From Oscillospiraceae bacterium (GTDB taxonomy: Bacteria > Bacillota > Clostridia > Oscillospirales > Ruminococcaceae), in the NCBI GenBank assembly GCA_017541275.1, contig JAFXZM010000016.1, positions 1 to 34,127 of the forward strand: a stretch of 34,127 bases of DNA. Reading direction: 5' to 3'. The notes under the pieces are model-generated. The model ran no database searches, was not told the origin of the DNA, and worked only from the letters and a program-made list of their open reading frames with translations. Of the stretch, positions 20,589 through 34,127 are shown in pieces (the first letter of the stretch is position 1; each line of letters starts with the position of its first letter). The position numbers and the translations under genes were made by a program.

Positions 20589-20608
20589 ATTTGTGACATC
20601 CCACAAAT
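20589..20608. repeat. Inverted repeat upstream of the sigma gene, possible operator
   Basis: ATTTGTG-ACATCC-CACAAAT is a perfect 7-bp inverted repeat about 85 bases before the sigma factor start codon. It could be a binding site for a dimeric regulator. Confidence 0.35.
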
Positions 20609-20691
20609 ATCAAAAATGGATAAGGAATCAGCCCCTGCCGGGACGTATGCAAAATGAAAGCAGCTTTCAGGCAGAGAAACGGAGCAAACAT

Positions 20692-21243
20692 ATGGAACAA
20701 GGTGCAGACAGCTACCGCCGGTATCTCGGCGGAGAAGAAGCCGCATTCTCTGAGATCATATCGGAATACCGCGGTCCGATCACATTTTTCATACAGCGCT
20801 ATGTACACGATCTCTGTGCGGCAGAGGATATTGCCGCCGATGTGTTCATGGATCTGGTCGTACACCGGCACAGATACCGTTTCGGAACGTCGTTCCGGAC
20901 GTATCTGTTCATGCTTGCGCGCAGCCGTGCGCTCGATCATCTGCGAAAGATGAAGCGCCGGCCGAGCGTTCCGCTGGAGGAAGCGGAGCTGACGCTTGCA
21001 GACGAGCAGGATCTTGAGCAGGAGGTTCTGCGCGGCGAACGGGCGCGCATGCTGCACGAGGCGATTGCGCAGCTCCCGGAGGAGCAGCAGATCGCGGTGC
21101 ATCTGGTGTATTTTGAGGAGCGCTCCTATGCGGACACCGCACGGATCATGAAGAAATCGAAAAAGCAGGTTGACAATCTGCTTTACCGTGCAAAAAGCGC
21201 ATTGCGGAGCATCATCGGAGAGGACGGTGAGCGGGAATCATGA
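20692..21243 (+). CDS. RNA polymerase ECF-type sigma-70 factor
   Basis: A 183-residue sigma factor with only regions 2 and 4, as in the extracytoplasmic-function group. Region 2 covers about residues 15-85 (AFSEIISEYRGPITFFIQRY then AEDIAADVFMDLV and YLFMLARSRALDHLRK). Region 4 covers about 120-175 (LPEEQQIAVHLVYFEERSYA then KKSKKQVDNLLYRAKSAL), a helix-turn-helix that reads -35 DNA. The ATG at 20692 is chosen for its GGAG seven bases upstream; in-frame GTG 20593 and ATG 20647 lack clear ribosome sites. It overlaps the next gene by ATGA, the usual sigma/anti-sigma coupling. Confidence 0.92.
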   Translation: MEQGADSYRRYLGGEEAAFSEIISEYRGPITFFIQRYVHDLCAAEDIAADVFMDLVVHRHRYRFGTSFRTYLFMLARSRALDHLRKMKRRPSVPLEEAELTLADEQDLEQEVLRGERARMLHEAIAQLPEEQQIAVHLVYFEERSYADTARIMKKSKKQVDNLLYRAKSALRSIIGEDGERES

Positions 21244-22025
21244 GACAGACAAATGAAGAATTCATGGCTGAGGTCATGCGCCGCAGCGCCGCCTACCGTG
21301 TGCGGCGGCGGAAGCAGATCACAGGAACGGCAGCGGCGCTTTGCATGGCGGCGGTCGTGGGCTTCGGTGCATTCGCACTGCGCACGCGGTCTGCCGACCG
21401 CATGAATACGGCAGATAACGCGGTCAGCTCCCAAGCCGCAGCGCCGGCAGACAACAGCTCTGCGGCTGACGCAGCAATGGCTGAAGAAGTGAATAGTGAA
21501 GCCGAGTACTGCCGCGAAGAAGCCGCGGAATCTGCTTCCTATGCGGACGCCGCCGAGGATAATCTGAAGGATGATGATACCGATGCGCCTGAGTATGAGG
21601 GAAACACCGTATTTTCGGAGATGACCGACGAAGCGCTCTGCGATTATTACGGCATTGCCGGGCTTCCGTCGTTCCTGAGCGGCAGAGTGCTCAAACCGGA
21701 CCGCACCATTGAGGAGCATACATTCTGGATCCTGAAAGGACCGGAGCAGAATGTTCACGGGATTACCCGCATGTCGGACGGTGCAAACGGCACGATTGTG
21801 GATGACCGCAACACCTGGATCTACCGCGAAGAGGAAACCGGGTATACGATCTATGTGACGCTCTCCCGCGAGGGACTGTATCAATACACCGCGGACGAAA
21901 ACGCGGAGCTTTACAGCGTCGCTGAGCGCGTGCGCGATTTCTATTTTGTTGTTGAAGGGCATTTTCCGGACGAGGAGGAGCTGGTCGGGAAATGTGCCGC
22001 CGGTCTGAATTTTTACTGGAACTGA
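21240..22025 (+). CDS. Putative anti-sigma factor, single-pass membrane protein
   Basis: A 261-residue protein with a short basic cytoplasmic N-terminus (about 26 residues), one membrane segment at 27-47 (ITGTAAALCMAAVVGFGAFA) and a long acidic extracellular part. Residues about 55-120 are low-complexity Ala/Glu/Asp. A folded domain at about 125-260 follows (FSEMTDEALCDYYGIAGLPS, later EETGYTIYVTLSREGLYQYT). No zinc-binding anti-sigma motif (HxxxCxxC) is visible. The anti-sigma call rests on the ATGA overlap with the sigma gene, topology and position. It could instead be an envelope sensor. Confidence 0.65.
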   Translation: MRQTNEEFMAEVMRRSAAYRVRRRKQITGTAAALCMAAVVGFGAFALRTRSADRMNTADNAVSSQAAAPADNSSAADAAMAEEVNSEAEYCREEAAESASYADAAEDNLKDDDTDAPEYEGNTVFSEMTDEALCDYYGIAGLPSFLSGRVLKPDRTIEEHTFWILKGPEQNVHGITRMSDGANGTIVDDRNTWIYREEETGYTIYVTLSREGLYQYTADENAELYSVAERVRDFYFVVEGHFPDEEELVGKCAAGLNFYWN

Positions 22026-22051
22026 ACGCATCTGACAGGGAGGTGCTTGTG

Positions 22052-22564
22052 ATGAAGCGCAGACAAATGCAGATGACAGCAGCTCTTGCGGGGGCAATGC
22101 TCCTGCTTGCGGGCTGCGGAACGAAAACGGAGGAGAGCAGCACAGCACTAGGGTATGCGGACGCAGAGGATCTTGATATTATCCGCGATGACAGCAGTGA
22201 CGGGCAGCCGTTTTCAGTCGCAGACGCAGCAGCGGTGCAGCACACTGCCGATCTGAATACGCTGACCGTCAGTCTCGAACAGACTGAATTCACTGCGGGA
22301 ACCACGGAGATCGGGGTGCTGCTGCGAAATGACGGAGACAGGGAAATCTTCTGGAACGGCGGTGATTTCCGGCTGGAGTATTCCGATGAACACACCGCAG
22401 GCTGTGCATCGCTTCTGGAGGACGATACGCCGATCTTCAGCATTCCGCCGCAGGGCAGCACATCTTATACGATAGATACCACAGGCTGGGGCATAGGCAG
22501 TCTGAAAGCCGGCGAATATGCGGTGCTGTTCGGAGACAAGCGCCTGACATTCACCGTAAATTAA
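22052..22564 (+). CDS. Putative lipoprotein
   Basis: A 170-residue exported lipoprotein. The signal peptide ends in the lipobox LLLAGC, giving acylated Cys22. An acidic spacer follows, and then a beta-rich domain from about residue 70 (LNTLTVSLEQTEFTAGTTEI, ending DKRLTFTVN) that looks immunoglobulin-like. GGAGG lies eight bases before the ATG; the longer frame from 21992 overlaps the previous gene and is rejected. It follows the putative anti-sigma gene by 26 bases. The stop codon lies within the 8-bp target duplication of the inserted element. Confidence 0.75.
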   Translation: MKRRQMQMTAALAGAMLLLAGCGTKTEESSTALGYADAEDLDIIRDDSSDGQPFSVADAAAVQHTADLNTLTVSLEQTEFTAGTTEIGVLLRNDGDREIFWNGGDFRLEYSDEHTAGCASLLEDDTPIFSIPPQGSTSYTIDTTGWGIGSLKAGEYAVLFGDKRLTFTVN

Positions 22565-22910
22565 AAGGGTATGTAACTTTTTAGGTGGTTGAAGTTTTAC
22601 CCGAGCATTCAAAATTCCTTTGTGAAACAAAATAAAAGTTTCGCTCAAGCCTTTTCAAAGGCTTGCGGGAGTCCGGAGGGCAGCGCCCTCCGGTCGCGCA
22701 TCGCAATGTGCGAAATTCCCTTGCGTCAGGAGCTCCGCAGGGGTGAATCGAGCAAAACGATCCGGCGGATCGTTTTGCCGAGAGGGGCGCCCTGCGATAG
22801 AGGGCGCCCCTGAGCGAATCGCTGTGCGATTCGCCGCCTGTTCCTGAAACAAATTATAACCACCAAAAATGCAACAGAAACCACCTAAATCTTTACATCC
22901 CCAATTAAAA
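22559..22910. mobile_element. Miniature inverted-repeat element with 8-bp target duplication
   Basis: The element proper is 22567-22902 (336 bp). Its ends are imperfect inverted repeats: 22567-22590 against 22879-22902 match at 20 of 24 positions, with GGTATGTAA outside and TTAGGTGGTT inside. It is flanked by the perfect direct repeat AATTAAAA at 22559-22566 and 22903-22910, the footprint of a transposition event. It has no coding capacity, so it needs a transposase supplied elsewhere. Inside are five hairpins: 22647-22664, 22673-22693, 22752-22778, 22783-22811 (11-bp stem) and 22814-22834. A second copy of the left half is at 34011-34127. It splits the lipoprotein gene from the serpin gene but leaves the serpin ribosome site intact. 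Confidence 0.75.
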
Positions 22911-22931
22911 TTACAACAGGAGGATACAGCA

Positions 22932-24209
22932 ATGAAAACAGCAGGAATCAAAGCAGCAGCACTGATCTGCACAGCGGCACTCTGTATGCCGTTCGCAGCC
23001 TGCGGAAAGCAGGGGAAGTCCGGCGGGCAAACCGTACAGGCAGCCGATCTGACGAAAGACATCAAGCCGCAGAGCGTAACCGATACCGCACCGGACGAGC
23101 AGTTCTGTGCCGGGCAGACCGCCTTTGCGCTGCATCTGATGCAGGAAACACTGAAAGAAGATTCGGAAAACGTCCTGATTTCGCCGTATTCGGTAATGCA
23201 GGCGCTCGCGATGACCGCGAACGGCGCAAAAGGGGAAACGCTTTCGCAGATGGAGCAGGTACTCGGCGGCATACCGGTCGGCAGCCTGAACGGCTACCTG
23301 CACAAGCAGCGCAGTCTGCTTCCGGATACGGACGAATGCAGATTCCGCGATGCGAACTCGGTCTGGTTCCGCGACGATGCGAGCCGGCTGACCATGCAGC
23401 AGGATTTCCTGCAAACAACCGCCGATTACTACGGCGCGGACGCATTCAAGGCGCCCTTTGACGACAGCACCCTGAATGATGTGAACAACTGGATCAGCGA
23501 CCGCACCGCCGGCAGGATCCCGAAGATGCTCGACAGGATCGGCCAAGAGGATGTGATCTATCTGGTGAATGCAGTGGTGTTCGATGCGAAGTGGGAAAGC
23601 CCGTATGACGGCGAAGAATTCAGCAGCGTCGAATTCACGGCGCTGAACGGAAAAACGCAGACGGCAAATATGATGTTTTTCGATGAATATACGTATCTTT
23701 CCGATGTACACGCGACCGGCTTTGTCAAGCCCTATCAGGGCGGACAGTATGCCTTTGCGGCGCTGCTGCCGGAGGAAGGGCTTTCGGTCACGGATTACGT
23801 TGCCGGCCTGACGCCGGAATCGCTCCGCGAAACGCTGACCTGCGCGCAGCACACGGCGGTCGATGCAGGACTGCCTGCATTCAGCTATGATTTTGATGCC
23901 GAGCTGTCCCCGATGCTGAAAAGCATGGGCATGACGGATGCCTTTGACCCGGACATTGCCGATCTAACGGGCATGGCGTCCAGCTCAAACGGCAATATCT
24001 ATATCAGTCAGGTATTGCACAAAACCCACATCGACGTCAACACCGAGGGCACATCCGCAGCCGCCGCGACCGTTGTGACGGCATGCGATAGCTGTGCGCT
24101 TCCGGAGGATGTGAAGCATGTGACGCTGGACCGGCCGTTCCTGTATATGATTATTGATACTGAGAACAGCCTGCCGGTATTCATGGGCGTACTGACGGAG
24201 CTGCCGTAA
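22932..24209 (+). CDS. Serpin family protease inhibitor, lipoprotein (copy 1)
   Basis: A 425-residue serpin with a lipoprotein signal: the lipobox-like FAAC gives Cys24. The core has NVLISPYSVMQALAMTANGA, VYLVNAVVFDAKWESPY-like segments, and the serpin signature LDRPFLYMIIDTENSLPVFM. The reactive-loop hinge is intact (EGTSAAAAT at 372-380), so it should be inhibitory. The following loop is VVTACDSCALPED, with two cysteines near the expected scissile bond; P1 cannot be fixed by eye. The start at 22932 has AGGAGG. It is a paralogue of the second serpin about 860 bases downstream. By family knowledge it would trap serine or cysteine proteases at the cell surface. Confidence 0.93.
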   Translation: MKTAGIKAAALICTAALCMPFAACGKQGKSGGQTVQAADLTKDIKPQSVTDTAPDEQFCAGQTAFALHLMQETLKEDSENVLISPYSVMQALAMTANGAKGETLSQMEQVLGGIPVGSLNGYLHKQRSLLPDTDECRFRDANSVWFRDDASRLTMQQDFLQTTADYYGADAFKAPFDDSTLNDVNNWISDRTAGRIPKMLDRIGQEDVIYLVNAVVFDAKWESPYDGEEFSSVEFTALNGKTQTANMMFFDEYTYLSDVHATGFVKPYQGGQYAFAALLPEEGLSVTDYVAGLTPESLRETLTCAQHTAVDAGLPAFSYDFDAELSPMLKSMGMTDAFDPDIADLTGMASSSNGNIYISQVLHKTHIDVNTEGTSAAAATVVTACDSCALPEDVKHVTLDRPFLYMIIDTENSLPVFMGVLTELP

Positions 24210-25067: not shown

Positions 25068-26351
25068 ATGAAATACAGAAGATCTATGAGCTTTGCGGCG
25101 GCGATGCTGCTGCTCTGCGCCGGACTGACCGGCTGCGGAAAACAGGAATCTGACACACCCGCCGGACAGACGGTACAGGCAGCCGATCTGACGGCGGATA
25201 TCAAGCCGCAGGCCGTGACGGGCGCAGACCCGGACGAGACCTACTGTGCGGGGCAGACGGCCTTTGCACTGAAGCTGATGCAGGAGACCCTGAAAAAGCA
25301 GCAGGACAATGTGCTGATCTCGCCGTACTCGGTGATGCAGGCGCTCGCGATGACCGCGAACGGCGCAAACGGTGATACGCTGGCACAAATGGAGCAGACG
25401 CTCGGCGGGCTGCCGATTGCCGACCTGAACCGGTATCTGTACACGGTGCGCACGAATCAGCCGAACACGGAAGCGTGCAAGCTGGAGTGTGCAAACTCTC
25501 TCTGGATCCGGGACGACGGCGACCGGATAGAGGCGAAGCCGGATTTTCTGCAAACCACTGCAGATTATTACGGCGCACCGGCGTATAAGCGGCCGTTCGA
25601 TCAGAGCACGGCAGACGAAATCAATAGCTGGTGCAGCGAGCACACCGACGGGATGATTCCGCATGTCATCAGCGAGATTGATGAGACCGAATTAATGTAT
25701 CTCATCAATGCGGTCGTGTTTGATGCGAAATGGGAGAAACAATACGAGAATGACCCGACAGACCGTGATTTCAAGGCGCTGGACGGCAGCACGCAGACGG
25801 CGCAGATGATGTATTCAGACGAGCATCTGTATCTGACCGATGCGCATGCATGCGGATTCATGAAGCCGTATGCGGGCGGAAAGTATGCGTTTGCGGCGCT
25901 TCTGCCGGAGGAGGGGCTGTCCGTAACGGATTATGTCGCCGGCCTGACGCCGGAATCGCTCCGGAAAACGCTGACCGGCGCGGACAGGGAGGACGTGTAT
26001 GCGGGGCTGCCGGAGTTTACCTATGATTTTGATACAGAAATGACGGAGCAGCTCTCGAACATGGGCATGCCCGGTGCGTTCAGCGAGGGCGCAGATTTCA
26101 GACGCATGGCCAAAACAGACAATGGCTTACTGTATATTGACAAGGTGCTGCACAAAACGCACATTGAGGTTGATCCGAAAGGAACAAAGGCAGCAGCGGT
26201 GACGGCGGTAATTATGACAAACGAATGTGATGCAGAAACGCCGGAGCCGAAATATGTCATTCTGGACCGACCGTTCCTGTATATGATCGTAGATACGGAA
26301 ACGGGTTTGCCGGTATTCATGGGAATCCTGACGGAAATACCGGGTAAATAA
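25068..26351 (+). CDS. Serpin family protease inhibitor, lipoprotein (copy 2)
   Basis: A 427-residue serpin with lipobox LTGC (Cys23). It is a close relative of copy 1: GQTVQAADLT, NVLISPYSVMQALAMTANGA, FAALLPEEGLSVTDYVAGLT and LDRPFLYMIVDTETGLPVFM are shared or nearly so. The hinge is KGTKAAAVT, a little less canonical than copy 1 (Val in place of one Ala). The loop then reads AVIMTNECDAETPEP, very different from copy 1, so the two should inhibit different proteases. AAGGAG precedes the ATG. A strong terminator follows at 26368. Confidence 0.93.
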   Translation: MKYRRSMSFAAAMLLLCAGLTGCGKQESDTPAGQTVQAADLTADIKPQAVTGADPDETYCAGQTAFALKLMQETLKKQQDNVLISPYSVMQALAMTANGANGDTLAQMEQTLGGLPIADLNRYLYTVRTNQPNTEACKLECANSLWIRDDGDRIEAKPDFLQTTADYYGAPAYKRPFDQSTADEINSWCSEHTDGMIPHVISEIDETELMYLINAVVFDAKWEKQYENDPTDRDFKALDGSTQTAQMMYSDEHLYLTDAHACGFMKPYAGGKYAFAALLPEEGLSVTDYVAGLTPESLRKTLTGADREDVYAGLPEFTYDFDTEMTEQLSNMGMPGAFSEGADFRRMAKTDNGLLYIDKVLHKTHIEVDPKGTKAAAVTAVIMTNECDAETPEPKYVILDRPFLYMIVDTETGLPVFMGILTEIPGK

Positions 26352-31756: not shown

Positions 31757-31854
31757 ATTCGTTTAGAACACGATGCAGAGCGGAAAAGAGGGCCGCTTGG
31801 CATATACCGACCCGTGCCATGTACCGCACGGAATTTTCAGGAGGGGGAATTACC

Positions 31855-33738
31855 ATGAAATCCAAAGCTTTGCTGTCAGTTCTGCTGGCAGCAGTCGTCG
31901 CCGGAACGGGATTTACGGCGCCTGCAAGTCCGATTCTTCAGGACGCAGCGCTGAATGTCTCCGCCGCCGATGACAACAACGACGACTGGCTGCACTGTGA
32001 GGGCAGCCGCATTTACGACATGAACGGCAATCAGGTCTGGCTGACGGGCGCCAACTGGTTCGGTCTGAACTGTACCGAGAACATCCCGCACGGCCTGTAT
32101 GCCAGAGATGTTGATGACTTCGTGCAAGACATCGCAAACCACGGCATCAACATCATCCGTTTCCCGATCTCCACGGAGCTGCTGCTTTCGTGGATGAACG
32201 GTGACCCGCTGCCGGTCAGCTCGGTCAACGCCTCGTACAACCCGCCGAAGGATGTGATCGGCGAGGACGGAACCGTCACAAAGGCCGGCACCTACGGCAA
32301 TACCAACAAGGACTTCGTGCAGGAGGACGGCAAGACGCTCAAGAATTCCATGGAGATCTTTGACGTCATCATGGGCAAGCTGAAGCAGTACGGCGTTAAG
32401 GCGCTGATCGACGTTCACAGCCCGGCCTCGCACAATTCCGGCCACAACTACGAGCTGTGGTACTACGAGCCGACAAGCGACAAGGCGGACGACATGGCCG
32501 TCGGACACTTCTCTAAAAAGCAGATCACATGGGATGACTGGAAGGATTCGATCACATGGCTCGCGCAGAAATACGCGAATGATGACACGATCGTCGCCTA
32601 TGACCTGAAAAACGAGCCGCACGGCAAGCGCGAATATTCCGGCACGACCTGTCCGTCGAATATCGCAAAATGGGACGATTCGACCGACCTGAACAACTGG
32701 AAATATTCCGCGGAGGAATGCGCCAAGTCGATCCTCAAGGTCAATCCGCACGCGCTGATTCTGGTCGAGGGCATCGAGCAGTCGCCGATGTTCGAGAAGG
32801 GCTATGACTGGGATACGCCGGATCAGTTCATCACCGACCCGAAGCGCGACGAGCCGAGGTGGTACGGTGCATGGTGGGGCGGCAACCTCCGCTGTGTCAA
32901 GGATCTGCCGATTCTGCCGCAGTCCGGTCAGATCATCTATTCGCCGCATGACTACGGCAAATCCGTTTATGAGCAGACATGGTTCAAGAAGAACTTTACC
33001 GAGGAAACCCTGCTGGACGACTACTGGCGTGACACATGGGCATATATCAATGAGCAGGACATCGCACCGCTGCTGATCGGCGAGTGGGGCGGCCACATGG
33101 ACAAGGGTGACAACGAAAAGTGGATGAAGATTCTGCGCGATTACATGATAAAGAATCACATCAACCACACGTTCTGGTGTCTGAACCCGAACTCCGGCGA
33201 TACCGGCGGCCTGCTTGACTCGATGTTCAAGAACTGGGATGCTGACAAATACGGCCTGTTCGAGCCGTCGCTGTGGCAGACAGACGGCGGAAAGTACATC
33301 GGCCTTGACCATCAGAAGGCGCTTGGCAGCAACGGCATATCCGTTTCAGAATTCTATGCAAGCGGCGCCAAGAGCAATATTGACAACGGCGGCACATCGC
33401 CGCACGGTCATGAGATCACAGTCACAACGACGACCGGCACAACCACGACCACCACGCAGACCACCACAACAACGACCACATCAACAATCGGCCCGAAGCC
33501 GAACATTGTCTGGGGCGATACTGATTGCAACGGCAGTGTTGATGTACGGGACGCAGTGCTGCTGGCGCGGGCAGTGGGCGATGACAAGACGCTGAAGGAT
33601 GACGAGCTGACCGATGAGGGCAAGGCGAATGCCGAGGTCACGCATGACGGCACGATTGATGCCAGCGATCTCTCGAAGCTGATGCGATTTTTTGCAGGCT
33701 ACATCAAGGAAAATGACCTTGCAACAGCAACCAAATGA
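31855..33738 (+). CDS. Secreted GH5 endoglucanase-type glycoside hydrolase with C-terminal dockerin (copy 2)
   Basis: A 627-residue paralogue of the preceding gene with the same layout: signal peptide (MKSKALLSVLLAAVVAGTG), a GH5 barrel opening WLTGANWFGLNCTE, Glu254 in DLKNEPH as acid/base and Glu410 in LIGEWGG as nucleophile. It carries extra loops before the acid/base (a segment with GEDGTVTKAGTYGNTNKDFV) and before the nucleophile (QSPMFEKGYDWDTPDQFITD). The linker at about 520-548 is almost pure threonine. The dockerin at about 553-620 has DTDCNGSVDVRDAVLLARA and EVTHDGTIDASDLSKLM. AGGAGGGGG precedes the ATG at 31855. The loop differences suggest a different substrate preference from copy 1. 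Confidence 0.95.
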   Translation: MKSKALLSVLLAAVVAGTGFTAPASPILQDAALNVSAADDNNDDWLHCEGSRIYDMNGNQVWLTGANWFGLNCTENIPHGLYARDVDDFVQDIANHGINIIRFPISTELLLSWMNGDPLPVSSVNASYNPPKDVIGEDGTVTKAGTYGNTNKDFVQEDGKTLKNSMEIFDVIMGKLKQYGVKALIDVHSPASHNSGHNYELWYYEPTSDKADDMAVGHFSKKQITWDDWKDSITWLAQKYANDDTIVAYDLKNEPHGKREYSGTTCPSNIAKWDDSTDLNNWKYSAEECAKSILKVNPHALILVEGIEQSPMFEKGYDWDTPDQFITDPKRDEPRWYGAWWGGNLRCVKDLPILPQSGQIIYSPHDYGKSVYEQTWFKKNFTEETLLDDYWRDTWAYINEQDIAPLLIGEWGGHMDKGDNEKWMKILRDYMIKNHINHTFWCLNPNSGDTGGLLDSMFKNWDADKYGLFEPSLWQTDGGKYIGLDHQKALGSNGISVSEFYASGAKSNIDNGGTSPHGHEITVTTTTGTTTTTTQTTTTTTTSTIGPKPNIVWGDTDCNGSVDVRDAVLLARAVGDDKTLKDDELTDEGKANAEVTHDGTIDASDLSKLMRFFAGYIKENDLATATK

Positions 33739-33745
33739 GAAAAAG

Positions 33746-33781
33746 CGACCGGAGACTGCTGAAACGAGCGGTCTCCGGTCG
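33746..33781 (+). terminator. Terminator after the second GH5 gene
   Basis: A perfect 11-bp stem (CGACCGGAGAC / GTCTCCGGTCG) with a 14-nt loop, followed by TTCAGTTTGTC, starts 8 bases after the stop. Confidence 0.75.
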
Positions 33782-33942
33782 TTCAGTTTGTCGGAAAACC
33801 CGCGGCGAGCGCAAATAAGCTATGCAGCCGGCAGTGCCCGGCTTAGCCGTAGAGAAAGTGGTATCTCCGATGAATTGATACTGGGGCTCTCGCTCGCTTT
33901 GCTATCCCCCCGCTTAAGGGCTATCCCCGGCAGAGGCTTGGG

Positions 33943-33990
33943 GACGGAGTCCCCATTCCGGATCATCGCGAAGCGATACCTTTTCGACAC
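33943..33990 (+). repeat. Dispersed intergenic repeat, copy 2
   Basis: Matches 15490-15537 at about 42 of 48 positions. It lies in the gene-free stretch 33782-34127, which otherwise holds only GC-rich hairpin-like sequence and the start of the miniature element. Confidence 0.65.
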
Positions 33991-34010
33991 GCAAAACGGT
34001 TGATTATATT

Positions 34011-34127
34011 GGGTATGTAATTTTTTAGGTGGTCGGAAAAATAAGGTTAAAACAAATAGTTTTAATTTCGCCCATATTAAAAGTTTCGCTCAAGCCTTTT
34101 CAAAGGCTTGCGGGTCGAGGGCAGAGC
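34011..34127. mobile_element. Second copy of the miniature element, cut by the window end
   Basis: Begins with the same terminal repeat as 22567 (GGGTATGTAA then TTTTTAGGTGGT). After about 50 diverged bases it rejoins the first copy at AAAAGTTTCGCTCAAGCC with the same AAGCCTTTTCAAAGGCTT hairpin. The right end and target duplication lie outside the window. Confidence 0.65.

What the first reader, a model, noticed from the sequence alone, without database searches (positions are those of the whole stretch)
22559..22910. A 336-bp non-autonomous transposable element with perfect 8-bp target duplication
The ends match as inverted repeats (20 of 24), AATTAAAA is exactly duplicated on both sides, and a second copy starts at 34011. 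The interior has no gene but is packed with five hairpins, unusual for a simple deletion derivative. It inserted exactly at the stop codon of a lipoprotein gene, inside the sigma-serpin cluster. It could act as a transcript-processing or termination module as well as a mobile element.
Basis: seen in the sequence. Interest (0 to 1): 0.72.

Follow-up and report, generated by a model that had tools for sequence, protein, structure and literature searches.

The report
Mobile element carrying a hairpin RNA cassette
A small jumping DNA element of an uncultured Ruminococcus carries inside it an apparently older row of seven RNA-like hairpins, which many related bacteria keep without the jumping ends, often just behind a gene.

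Summary
In detail: 22567-22902 is a 336-bp insertion with imperfect inverted ends (20 of 24) and an exact 8-bp duplication, AATTAAAA, containing the upstream gene's stop codon. It is a mobile non-autonomous element: the left end recurs in 8 of 30 genus genomes (68 places in one); 10 of 14 complete copies have perfect duplications, all different, against 0 of 182 mismatched pairings; a sister species has the empty site. The ends are ISL3-type: they flank an ISL3 transposase in another genus, and another ISL3 element has near-identical ends. No ISL3 transposase was found in 30 genus genomes. The interior is not a deletion remnant but an independent cassette of about 205 bp with seven hairpins, found in 28 of 30 genus genomes (20 without that left end) and 33 of 123 sampled genera. 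It covaries, folds better on the plus strand, and tends to lie co-directionally behind genes. Best reading: an ISL3 MITE spreading a 3'-UTR-type structured RNA. No terminator signature; RNA function is inferred, untested.

The parts
22559..22566 (.). target-site duplication, left copy (AATTAAAA), containing the TAA stop codon 22562-22564 of the upstream gene
22567..22590 (+). left terminal inverted repeat, ISL3-type (GGGTATGTAACTTTTTAGGTGGTT)
22591..22627 (+). left subterminal stretch, element-specific
22628..22836 (+). hairpin cassette (core), also found without these ends in other species
22646..22665 (+). hairpin H1
22673..22693 (+). hairpin H2
22694..22713 (+). hairpin H3
22718..22743 (+). 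hairpin H4 (CCCTTGCG / CGCAGGGG), found by eye and by folding the segment; the consensus structure has only two of its pairs
22748..22781 (+). hairpin H5
22783..22811 (+). hairpin H6
22814..22834 (+). hairpin H7
22858..22902 (-). right end: terminal inverted repeat plus a second, subterminal GGTGGTT repeat
22903..22910 (.). target-site duplication, right copy (AATTAAAA)
21992..22564 (+). upstream gene (190 aa); its stop codon lies in the target site
22932..24209 (+). downstream serpin gene; the mechanically listed ORF start 22869 lies inside the element, the likely start ATG 22932 follows AGGAGG (my reading)
34011..34127 (+). left part of a second element of another subtype, cut by the contig end

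Best explanation
The feature is a miniature transposable element of ISL3 type that has picked up, and spreads, an apparently older structured RNA cassette. Shown: the ends, the 8-bp duplications into A/T-rich targets, the copies, one empty site, the independence of the cassette, its covariation, its strand bias and its lean to positions behind genes. Inferred, mobility: an ISL3 transposase acting in trans binds the terminal GGGTATGTAA..AGGTGGT repeats (and the subterminal GGTGGTT repeat of the right end) and inserts the element with an 8-bp stagger at A/T-rich 8-mers; in this genome (window 54.5% GC) such sites often lie at TAA stop codons and gene ends. Inferred, cassette: inserted co-directionally behind a gene it is transcribed as part of the 3' UTR or of the spacer between two genes of an operon; the seven consecutive hairpins then protect the upstream message from exonucleases or serve as a cleavage site for a double-strand-specific RNase, uncoupling upstream from downstream gene. 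Here it separates the gene ending at 22564 from the serpin; in the sister species stop and start are about 22 nt apart.
For: Mobility: 10 of 14 complete elements with perfect, all different 8-bp duplications; pairing left and right flanks of different elements by the same search gives 0 perfect of 182. 111 unique end flanks have A/T 0.71, then 0.91-0.96 at six positions, then 0.65 across -8 to -1, against 0.42-0.59 at -30 to -11; 106 of 111 have at least 6 A/T of 8. Empty site in G028. ISL3: in G202 a left-type end lies beside an ISL3 transposase (PF01610, 2e-60) and a right-type end 7.4 kb away; a 41%-identical ISL3 element in L143 has ends GGGTATGAAACTTTAAGTGTGG / GGGTATATAACTTTTAGTGTGG and exact duplication GATAAATT. 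Cassette independence: 28 of 30 genus genomes, 20 of these 28 without the left end; 38 of 148 family genomes, 33 of 123 genera. Structure: 57 pairs, 97.4% of cells paired, 29 pairs with two-sided change, covariation 0.338 against 0.130 shuffled (0 of 500) and at most 0.087 slid. RNA strand: 89 G-U against 32 A-C cells; plus strand folds better in 63 of 90. Position: the gene on the 5' side points at the cassette in 54, away in 21, none in 3 of 78; 3' side 26, 28 and 24; mobile copies lean the same way, left side 45 toward, 24 away, right side 16 and 18.
Against: No ISL3 transposase in any of 30 genus genomes, so the trans partner is unproven in the host; multi-copy insertion sequences are often lost from metagenome assemblies (recalled), but that is an excuse, not a test. 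The 7.4-kb G202 unit has no matching 8-bp duplication (AAAAAATA against AATTACAT). 3 of 14 complete elements lack a duplication, and the 7-of-8 match of one more is weak, since 13 of 182 mismatched pairings do as well. The empty-site species is only about 70% identical there; a second attempt was not clean. 21 of 75 scored cassettes have the 5'-side gene pointing away. One covariation measure, further pair types, is not in excess (54 against 58.2). Sequences are related, so the probabilities overstate; the G-U count uses an alignment fitted to the model. Three of five insertion sites shared by G000 and G028 hold the element in opposite orientations, which a strictly orientation-dependent RNA role does not predict. 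No transcription data.
Confidence: 0.72

Rival explanations
1. Purely selfish MITE with a DNA-level palindrome load: the hairpins have no RNA role and are kept symmetric by template switching or gene conversion between arms, or act as DNA (supercoiling, protein binding).
For: The helices are local hairpins, which template switching can keep symmetric; the elements behave as ordinary transposons; opposite orientations at three of five sites shared by two species.
Against: Order of different hairpins and linkers kept in the best-scoring copies from other genera; G-U in excess of A-C and plus-strand folding advantage in 63 of 90; orientation bias relative to the upstream gene. A strand-symmetric DNA process predicts none of the last three.
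Confidence: 0.22
2. Transcription terminator module delivered behind genes by transposition.
For: Position behind genes.
Against: 0 terminator-like sites on either strand of 21900-23300, shuffles 1.6 on average (a consensus scan); in the window the element lies inside an operon-like pair whose spacing in the sister species is about 22 nt.
Confidence: 0.08
3. Simple internal-deletion derivative of a resident insertion sequence.
For: Shares both end types with the ISL3 unit of G202.
Against: The interior matches the independent cassette, which occurs without the left end in 20 of the 28 genus genomes that have it.
Confidence: 0.05
4. The ends belong to another family with 8-bp duplications, such as IS256.
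For: IS256-type elements also make 8-9 bp duplications (recalled).
Against: IS256 transposase (PF00872) in 0 of 8 genomes that carry the ends; the ends match ISL3 elements. Other families were not searched.
Confidence: 0.03

Closest known systems
ISL3-family insertion sequences and transposons, e.g. Tn7546 (PMC9782665, passages read)
   Same: GGG-starting ends and 8-bp A/T-rich duplications; the paper gives inverted repeat GGGTCTTCGGA and duplication AAAATAAG for Tn7546, the same 8-mer as the duplication in L122
   Different: 336 bp, no transposase, structured cassette inside; no ISL3 transposase found in 30 genus genomes
ERIC, Correia/NEMIS and YPAL repeats (PMC2229807, passages read)
   Same: small mobile repeats whose transcripts fold strongly; the review reports RNase III processing proposed for NEMIS and an apparent role of ERIC in mRNA stability
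   Different: the review describes most of them as having a stem loop formed by pairing of the two ends; here the cassette is seven separate hairpins, found in most genomes of the genus without the mobile ends
bcr1-bcr18 repeats of Bacillus cereus (PMC3446304, passages read)
   Same: multi-copy intergenic repeats, some MITE-like, some with conserved RNA structure; 84 of 165 and 62 of 155 were part of an mRNA in two strains
   Different: no sequence relation tested; here mobile ends and structured cassette can be separated into two evolutionary units
REP/BIME palindromes (PMC3733652, start of the abstract seen in a search listing)
   Same: high-copy extragenic palindromes
   Different: about 205 bp with seven different hairpins, against 20-40 bp palindromes; tag sequences and RAYT transposases not tested

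Membership tests
ISL3 family (as a non-autonomous derivative) | 8-bp target duplication | tested here: met
   10 of 14 perfect, 1 of 14 with 7 of 8, 3 of 14 none; 0 of 182 mismatched pairings perfect; 8 bp for an ISL3 element in L143
ISL3 family (as a non-autonomous derivative) | terminal inverted repeats like those of ISL3 elements | tested here: met
   same end types beside a PF01610 transposase in G202; near-identical ends of L143
ISL3 family (as a non-autonomous derivative) | A/T-rich target (recalled as typical) | tested here: met
   106 of 111 flanks with at least 6 A/T of 8
ISL3 family (as a non-autonomous derivative) | ISL3 transposase available in the host | tested here: inconclusive
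   0 of 30 genus genomes; many assemblies incomplete; controls rang in 4 of 14 named genomes
MITE | short, no transposase gene, inverted ends, target duplications, many dispersed copies | tested here: met
MITE | precise empty sites in relatives | tested here: met
   window locus against G028, one site; a second attempt at G000:C57 was not clean because the left flank did not align
MITE | shown to move when the transposase is supplied | not testable with these tools
   needs an experiment
Known Rfam RNA family | reaches a gathering score | tested here: not met
   0 in the window; 3 matches at E up to 5, all far below gathering scores
Structured intergenic repeat (ERIC/NEMIS/bcr type) | conserved secondary structure with compensatory changes | tested here: met
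Structured intergenic repeat (ERIC/NEMIS/bcr type) | transcribed and affecting message stability | not testable with these tools
   no expression data
REP/REPIN with RAYT | tagged short palindromes and a RAYT transposase | not tested
   -

The most novel reading that the evidence does not exclude
The cassette is an undescribed class of structured 3'-UTR RNA, spread over a bacterial family and present in up to at least 74 copies per genome, and at least one group of Ruminococcus has turned it into a self-spreading 3' UTR by placing it between ISL3 ends, so that a transposon distributes a post-transcriptional regulatory module to stop codons.
Probability: 0.45. Interest if true: 0.82.

Novelty: new variant of a known kind. 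Interest (0 to 1): 0.64.

Why it matters
It separates the two halves of a bacterial MITE: a mobile vehicle (ISL3-type ends, seen in 8 of 30 genomes of one genus) and a passenger with its own, wider distribution (about 205 bp, 33 of 123 sampled genera). If the passenger is a 3'-UTR RNA, the old question whether structured bacterial repeats are selfish or useful becomes testable: the same cassette can be compared with and without transposon ends, in both orientations, at orthologous genes. It may also help to explain broken assemblies: many of the ends listed in G028 lie near contig ends.

Tried and rejected
IS256 origin: PF00872 in 0 of 8 end-carrying genomes. Rfam: nothing at gathering; weak matches treated as chance. 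Autonomous copy in the genus: no ISL3 transposase by protein or by PF01610 in 30 genomes. L124, an IMG/VR contig whose right end is followed inward by foreign sequence, was considered as an autonomous copy; a scan of viral contigs for that sequence found only L124 itself, so it stays open. G187, of another genus, also gave one match to the end pattern; its surroundings look like a coding sequence, not an element, and it was dropped. Phage and plasmid collections: 2 phage records with a 60-base match, none in plasmids. A first gene-orientation count by ORF length alone was indecisive (58 toward, 52 away, 1 none of 111), I think because of shadow ORFs; the codon-scored counts replaced it. A helix closing H1-H3 (AGTTTCG with CGAAACT) was considered by eye; it competes with H3 and is mostly invariant, so it is not claimed. 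A second empty site (G000:C57 in G028) is not clean: element absent but left flank not alignable. Papers: the searches that bear on this repeat listed no description of it; some searches were about ISL3 and bcr repeats. The library holds only open-licence papers.

Limits of counts: one search scored at most 81 and at most 16 candidates per genome, so copy numbers are lower bounds; the 28 genomes range from 1 to 74 matches. '20 of 28 without the left end' uses the pattern at up to 2 mismatches; the looser pattern also finds one end in G022, which is one of those 20. One search used 78 of the 79 matches (one at the edge of L187 left out), and its regions were chosen around high-scoring matches. 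The 14 elements are those whose two ends lay in one locus fetched by then; its search tried 3 left and 7 right offsets (control). In one search only flank matches of at least 250 bases were kept; one search had listed two weaker pairs (143-144 bases), one same and one opposite, that were dropped.

Full report
WHAT IS THERE. The window (G000:C39 of a 2.04-Mb, 66-contig, 75.6%-complete assembly) holds at 22567-22902 a 336-bp insertion. Its ends match at 20 of 24 positions as inverted repeats, and AATTAAAA stands on both sides. The upstream ORF 21992-22564 ends with TAA at 22562-22564, inside the duplicated 8 bp, so insertion left the gene intact. The second copy at 34011 is real but cut by the contig end. 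Genes around: a sigma-70-type factor at 20593-21243, a serpin after the element and another at 25068-26351. Whether the gene before the element encodes a lipoprotein was not tested; it has only a below-cut-off Big_14 match.

MOBILITY. The left end occurs in 8 of 30 genomes of the genus at up to 2 mismatches: 68 places in G028, 16 in G004, 9 in the own genome, 5 in G029, 2 each in G011 and G027, 1 each in G014 and G026; the reversed-pattern control gave 0 in all 30. The right end was sought only in those eight genomes: 5 of 8 have it, 67 places in G028, 13 in G004, 11 in G000, 4 each in G027 and G029. An exact scan of genome contigs found 41 stretches, all in three assemblies titled uncultured Ruminococcus (the own genome may be left out there). 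Among loci fetched by then, 14 distinct elements had both ends in one locus: 10 with a perfect 8-bp duplication, all ten different, 1 with 7 of 8, 3 with 2 to 4 mismatches, counted as none. The same search on left and right flanks of different elements gave 0 perfect of 182, but 13 of 182 with at most one mismatch, so the 7-of-8 case counts for little. In G028, 31 of 68 left ends have an 8-mer that fits some right end as a duplication, against 10 and 16 in two controls; in G000 5 of 9 against 0 and 0. Over 111 distinct end flanks the last eight bases are A/T-rich (0.71, then 0.91-0.96 at six positions, then 0.65; 0.76 and 0.62 at -10 and -9; 0.42-0.59 at -30 to -11), and 106 of 111 have at least 6 A/T of 8. 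G028 has the empty site: the two flanking genes match at G028:C364 9005-10269 and 10278-10803, 8 bases apart, and the joined flanks align without the element, 182 of 265 columns identical. There stop and start are about 22 nt apart; taking the element and one duplication out of the window gives 23.

WHICH TRANSPOSON FAMILY. IS256 transposases are absent from all 8 end-carrying genomes. In a family-wide scan 6 of 396 genomes matched the end pattern: G000, G004, G011 and G022 of the genus, G187 (one match, in what looks like a coding sequence) and G202, of another genus. In G202 a left-type end lies next to an ISL3 transposase (PF01610 2e-60, with the ISL3 zinc ribbon and helix-turn-helix), and a right-type end lies 7.4 kb away beyond a type I restriction-modification set and a TIR-domain gene. 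The outer flanks of that 7.4-kb unit do not match as a duplication. A 41%-identical ISL3 element on an IMG/VR contig (L143) has ends GGGTATGAAACTTTAAGTGTGG and GGGTATATAACTTTTAGTGTGG and an exact duplication GATAAATT. A published ISL3 transposon, Tn7546, has the 8-bp duplication AAAATAAG (passage read), the same 8-mer as one copy here (L122). The ends are therefore ISL3-type. The gap is that no ISL3 transposase was found in 30 genus genomes.

THE INTERIOR IS A SEPARATE THING. The search with the whole locus showed that about 22628-22837 alone matches, at 74-91% in the listed rows, in many genomes that lack the ends. Paralogues in G015 share about 205 bp and little beyond; in G002 and G009 some flank is shared as well. 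A covariance model of 32 copies finds the cassette in 28 of 30 genus genomes, 1 to 74 matches each among at most 81 scored candidates; 20 of these 28 have no left end, though G022, one of the 20, shows one end under the looser pattern. In the family it is found in 38 of 148 genomes and 33 of 123 genera. Of 18 copies from other genera printed, the better-scoring ones keep the order of hairpins and linkers such as GGGGTGAATT; weaker ones (for example L212, L214-L217, L219) have replaced or lost hairpins. So the mobile element is a vehicle plus a passenger; that the passenger is older is inferred from its wider distribution.

STRUCTURE. In 32 genus copies, 57 pairs in seven helices give 97.4% paired cells (shuffled 86.1), 29 pairs with a change on both sides (18.6), covariation 0.338 (0.130; 0 of 500 shuffles reach it), against at most 0.087 when slid; one measure, further pair types, is not in excess (54 against 58.2). 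The fourth helix of that structure has only two pairs; folding its segment gives a longer hairpin, H4, with mean energy -10.0 against -6.7 (sd 0.38) in 50 rounds of simple letter shuffling. In 90 copies from genus and family, G-U cells outnumber A-C cells 89 to 32, and the plus strand folds better than its complement in 63 of 90. This asymmetry is what selection on RNA of the plus strand predicts and a strand-symmetric DNA process does not. Cautions: relatedness is not corrected for, and the G-U count uses a model-fitted alignment (the folding comparison does not).

POSITION. For 78 cassettes in nine genomes, codon-scored gene calls put a gene pointing at the cassette on its 5' side in 54, pointing away in 21, none in 3; on its 3' side 26, 28 and 24 (binomial p 0.00018 for 54 of 75, Fisher p 0.0097 between sides). 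The mobile copies lean the same way: left side 45 toward, 24 away, 6 none; right side 16, 18 and 2 (p 0.015 and 0.86). A stop codon lies within 10 nt for 16 of 61 'toward' genes, a start within 10 nt for 0 of 42 'away' genes; 14 of 111 ends have the stop inside or abutting the target. In other genera two cassettes are often found facing each other (for example L249, L231, L237, L220), as expected if each of two convergent genes carries one. Against a strict orientation rule: of five sites occupied in both G000 and G028, three hold the element in opposite orientations.

MECHANISM. Shown: transposition signature, family of the ends, independence, structure, strand and orientation bias. Inferred: the cassette is transcribed with the upstream gene and its hairpin row protects or processes the message. 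Known parallels are the proposed RNase III processing of NEMIS and the stability effects of ERIC (passages read) and the transcribed bcr repeats (passages read). Termination is unlikely here: 0 terminator-like sites. In the window the expected effect is to uncouple the gene ending at 22564 from the serpin.

NOVELTY. ISL3 transposons, MITEs and structured repeats are each known. What I did not find described, in the paper searches and in Rfam, is this cassette or an ISL3 MITE carrying such a passenger. I rate it a new variant of a known kind, with a fair chance that the cassette is a new RNA class.

Noticed in passing
G000 and G028: C11/C2 (L019, L102), C45/C343 (L023, L277), C12/C449 (L139, L086): Of five insertion sites occupied at the same position (within 2 bases) in both species, three hold the element in opposite orientation (left end in one, right end in the other, same adjoining flank), two in the same orientation; G027 and G028 share three ends, all in the same orientation. 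Repeated independent insertion at hot targets, or in-place flipping, would be needed.
   Followed up: partly
L138 2530-9921 (G202:C16:63029-70420): 7.4-kb unit with ISL3-type ends carrying a type I restriction-modification set and a TIR-domain gene next to an ISL3 transposase; no matching target duplication.
   Followed up: partly
L124 1-8333 (IMG/VR contig): Phage-like contig that ends on both sides in this element family; the right end at 77-103 is followed inward by sequence unlike the other copies. That it is a phage is my reading of its ORFs; no family search was run on them.
   Followed up: partly
L231, L232, L220, L225, L229, L237, L238, L249: Cassettes in facing pairs, plus copy then minus copy, some tens to a few hundred bases apart, in other genera.
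   Followed up: partly
window 33760-34003: Further palindromic modules (for example around GATCATCGCGAAGCGATAC) directly before the second element; similar modules sit beside cassettes in G002 and G015.
   Followed up: no
L186 (G002) and L075 (G028): Behind what looks like the same gene, G002 has a bare cassette and G028 the mobile element, both facing the same way, with different sequence between gene and cassette.
   Followed up: partly
L112 (G028:C71): One element inserted inside the right end of another (nested copies).
   Followed up: no
window 31819-33738: GH5 cellulase with a dockerin domain, a cellulosome-type protein.
   Followed up: no
window 25068-26351: A second serpin gene, one ORF beyond the first.
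   Followed up: no
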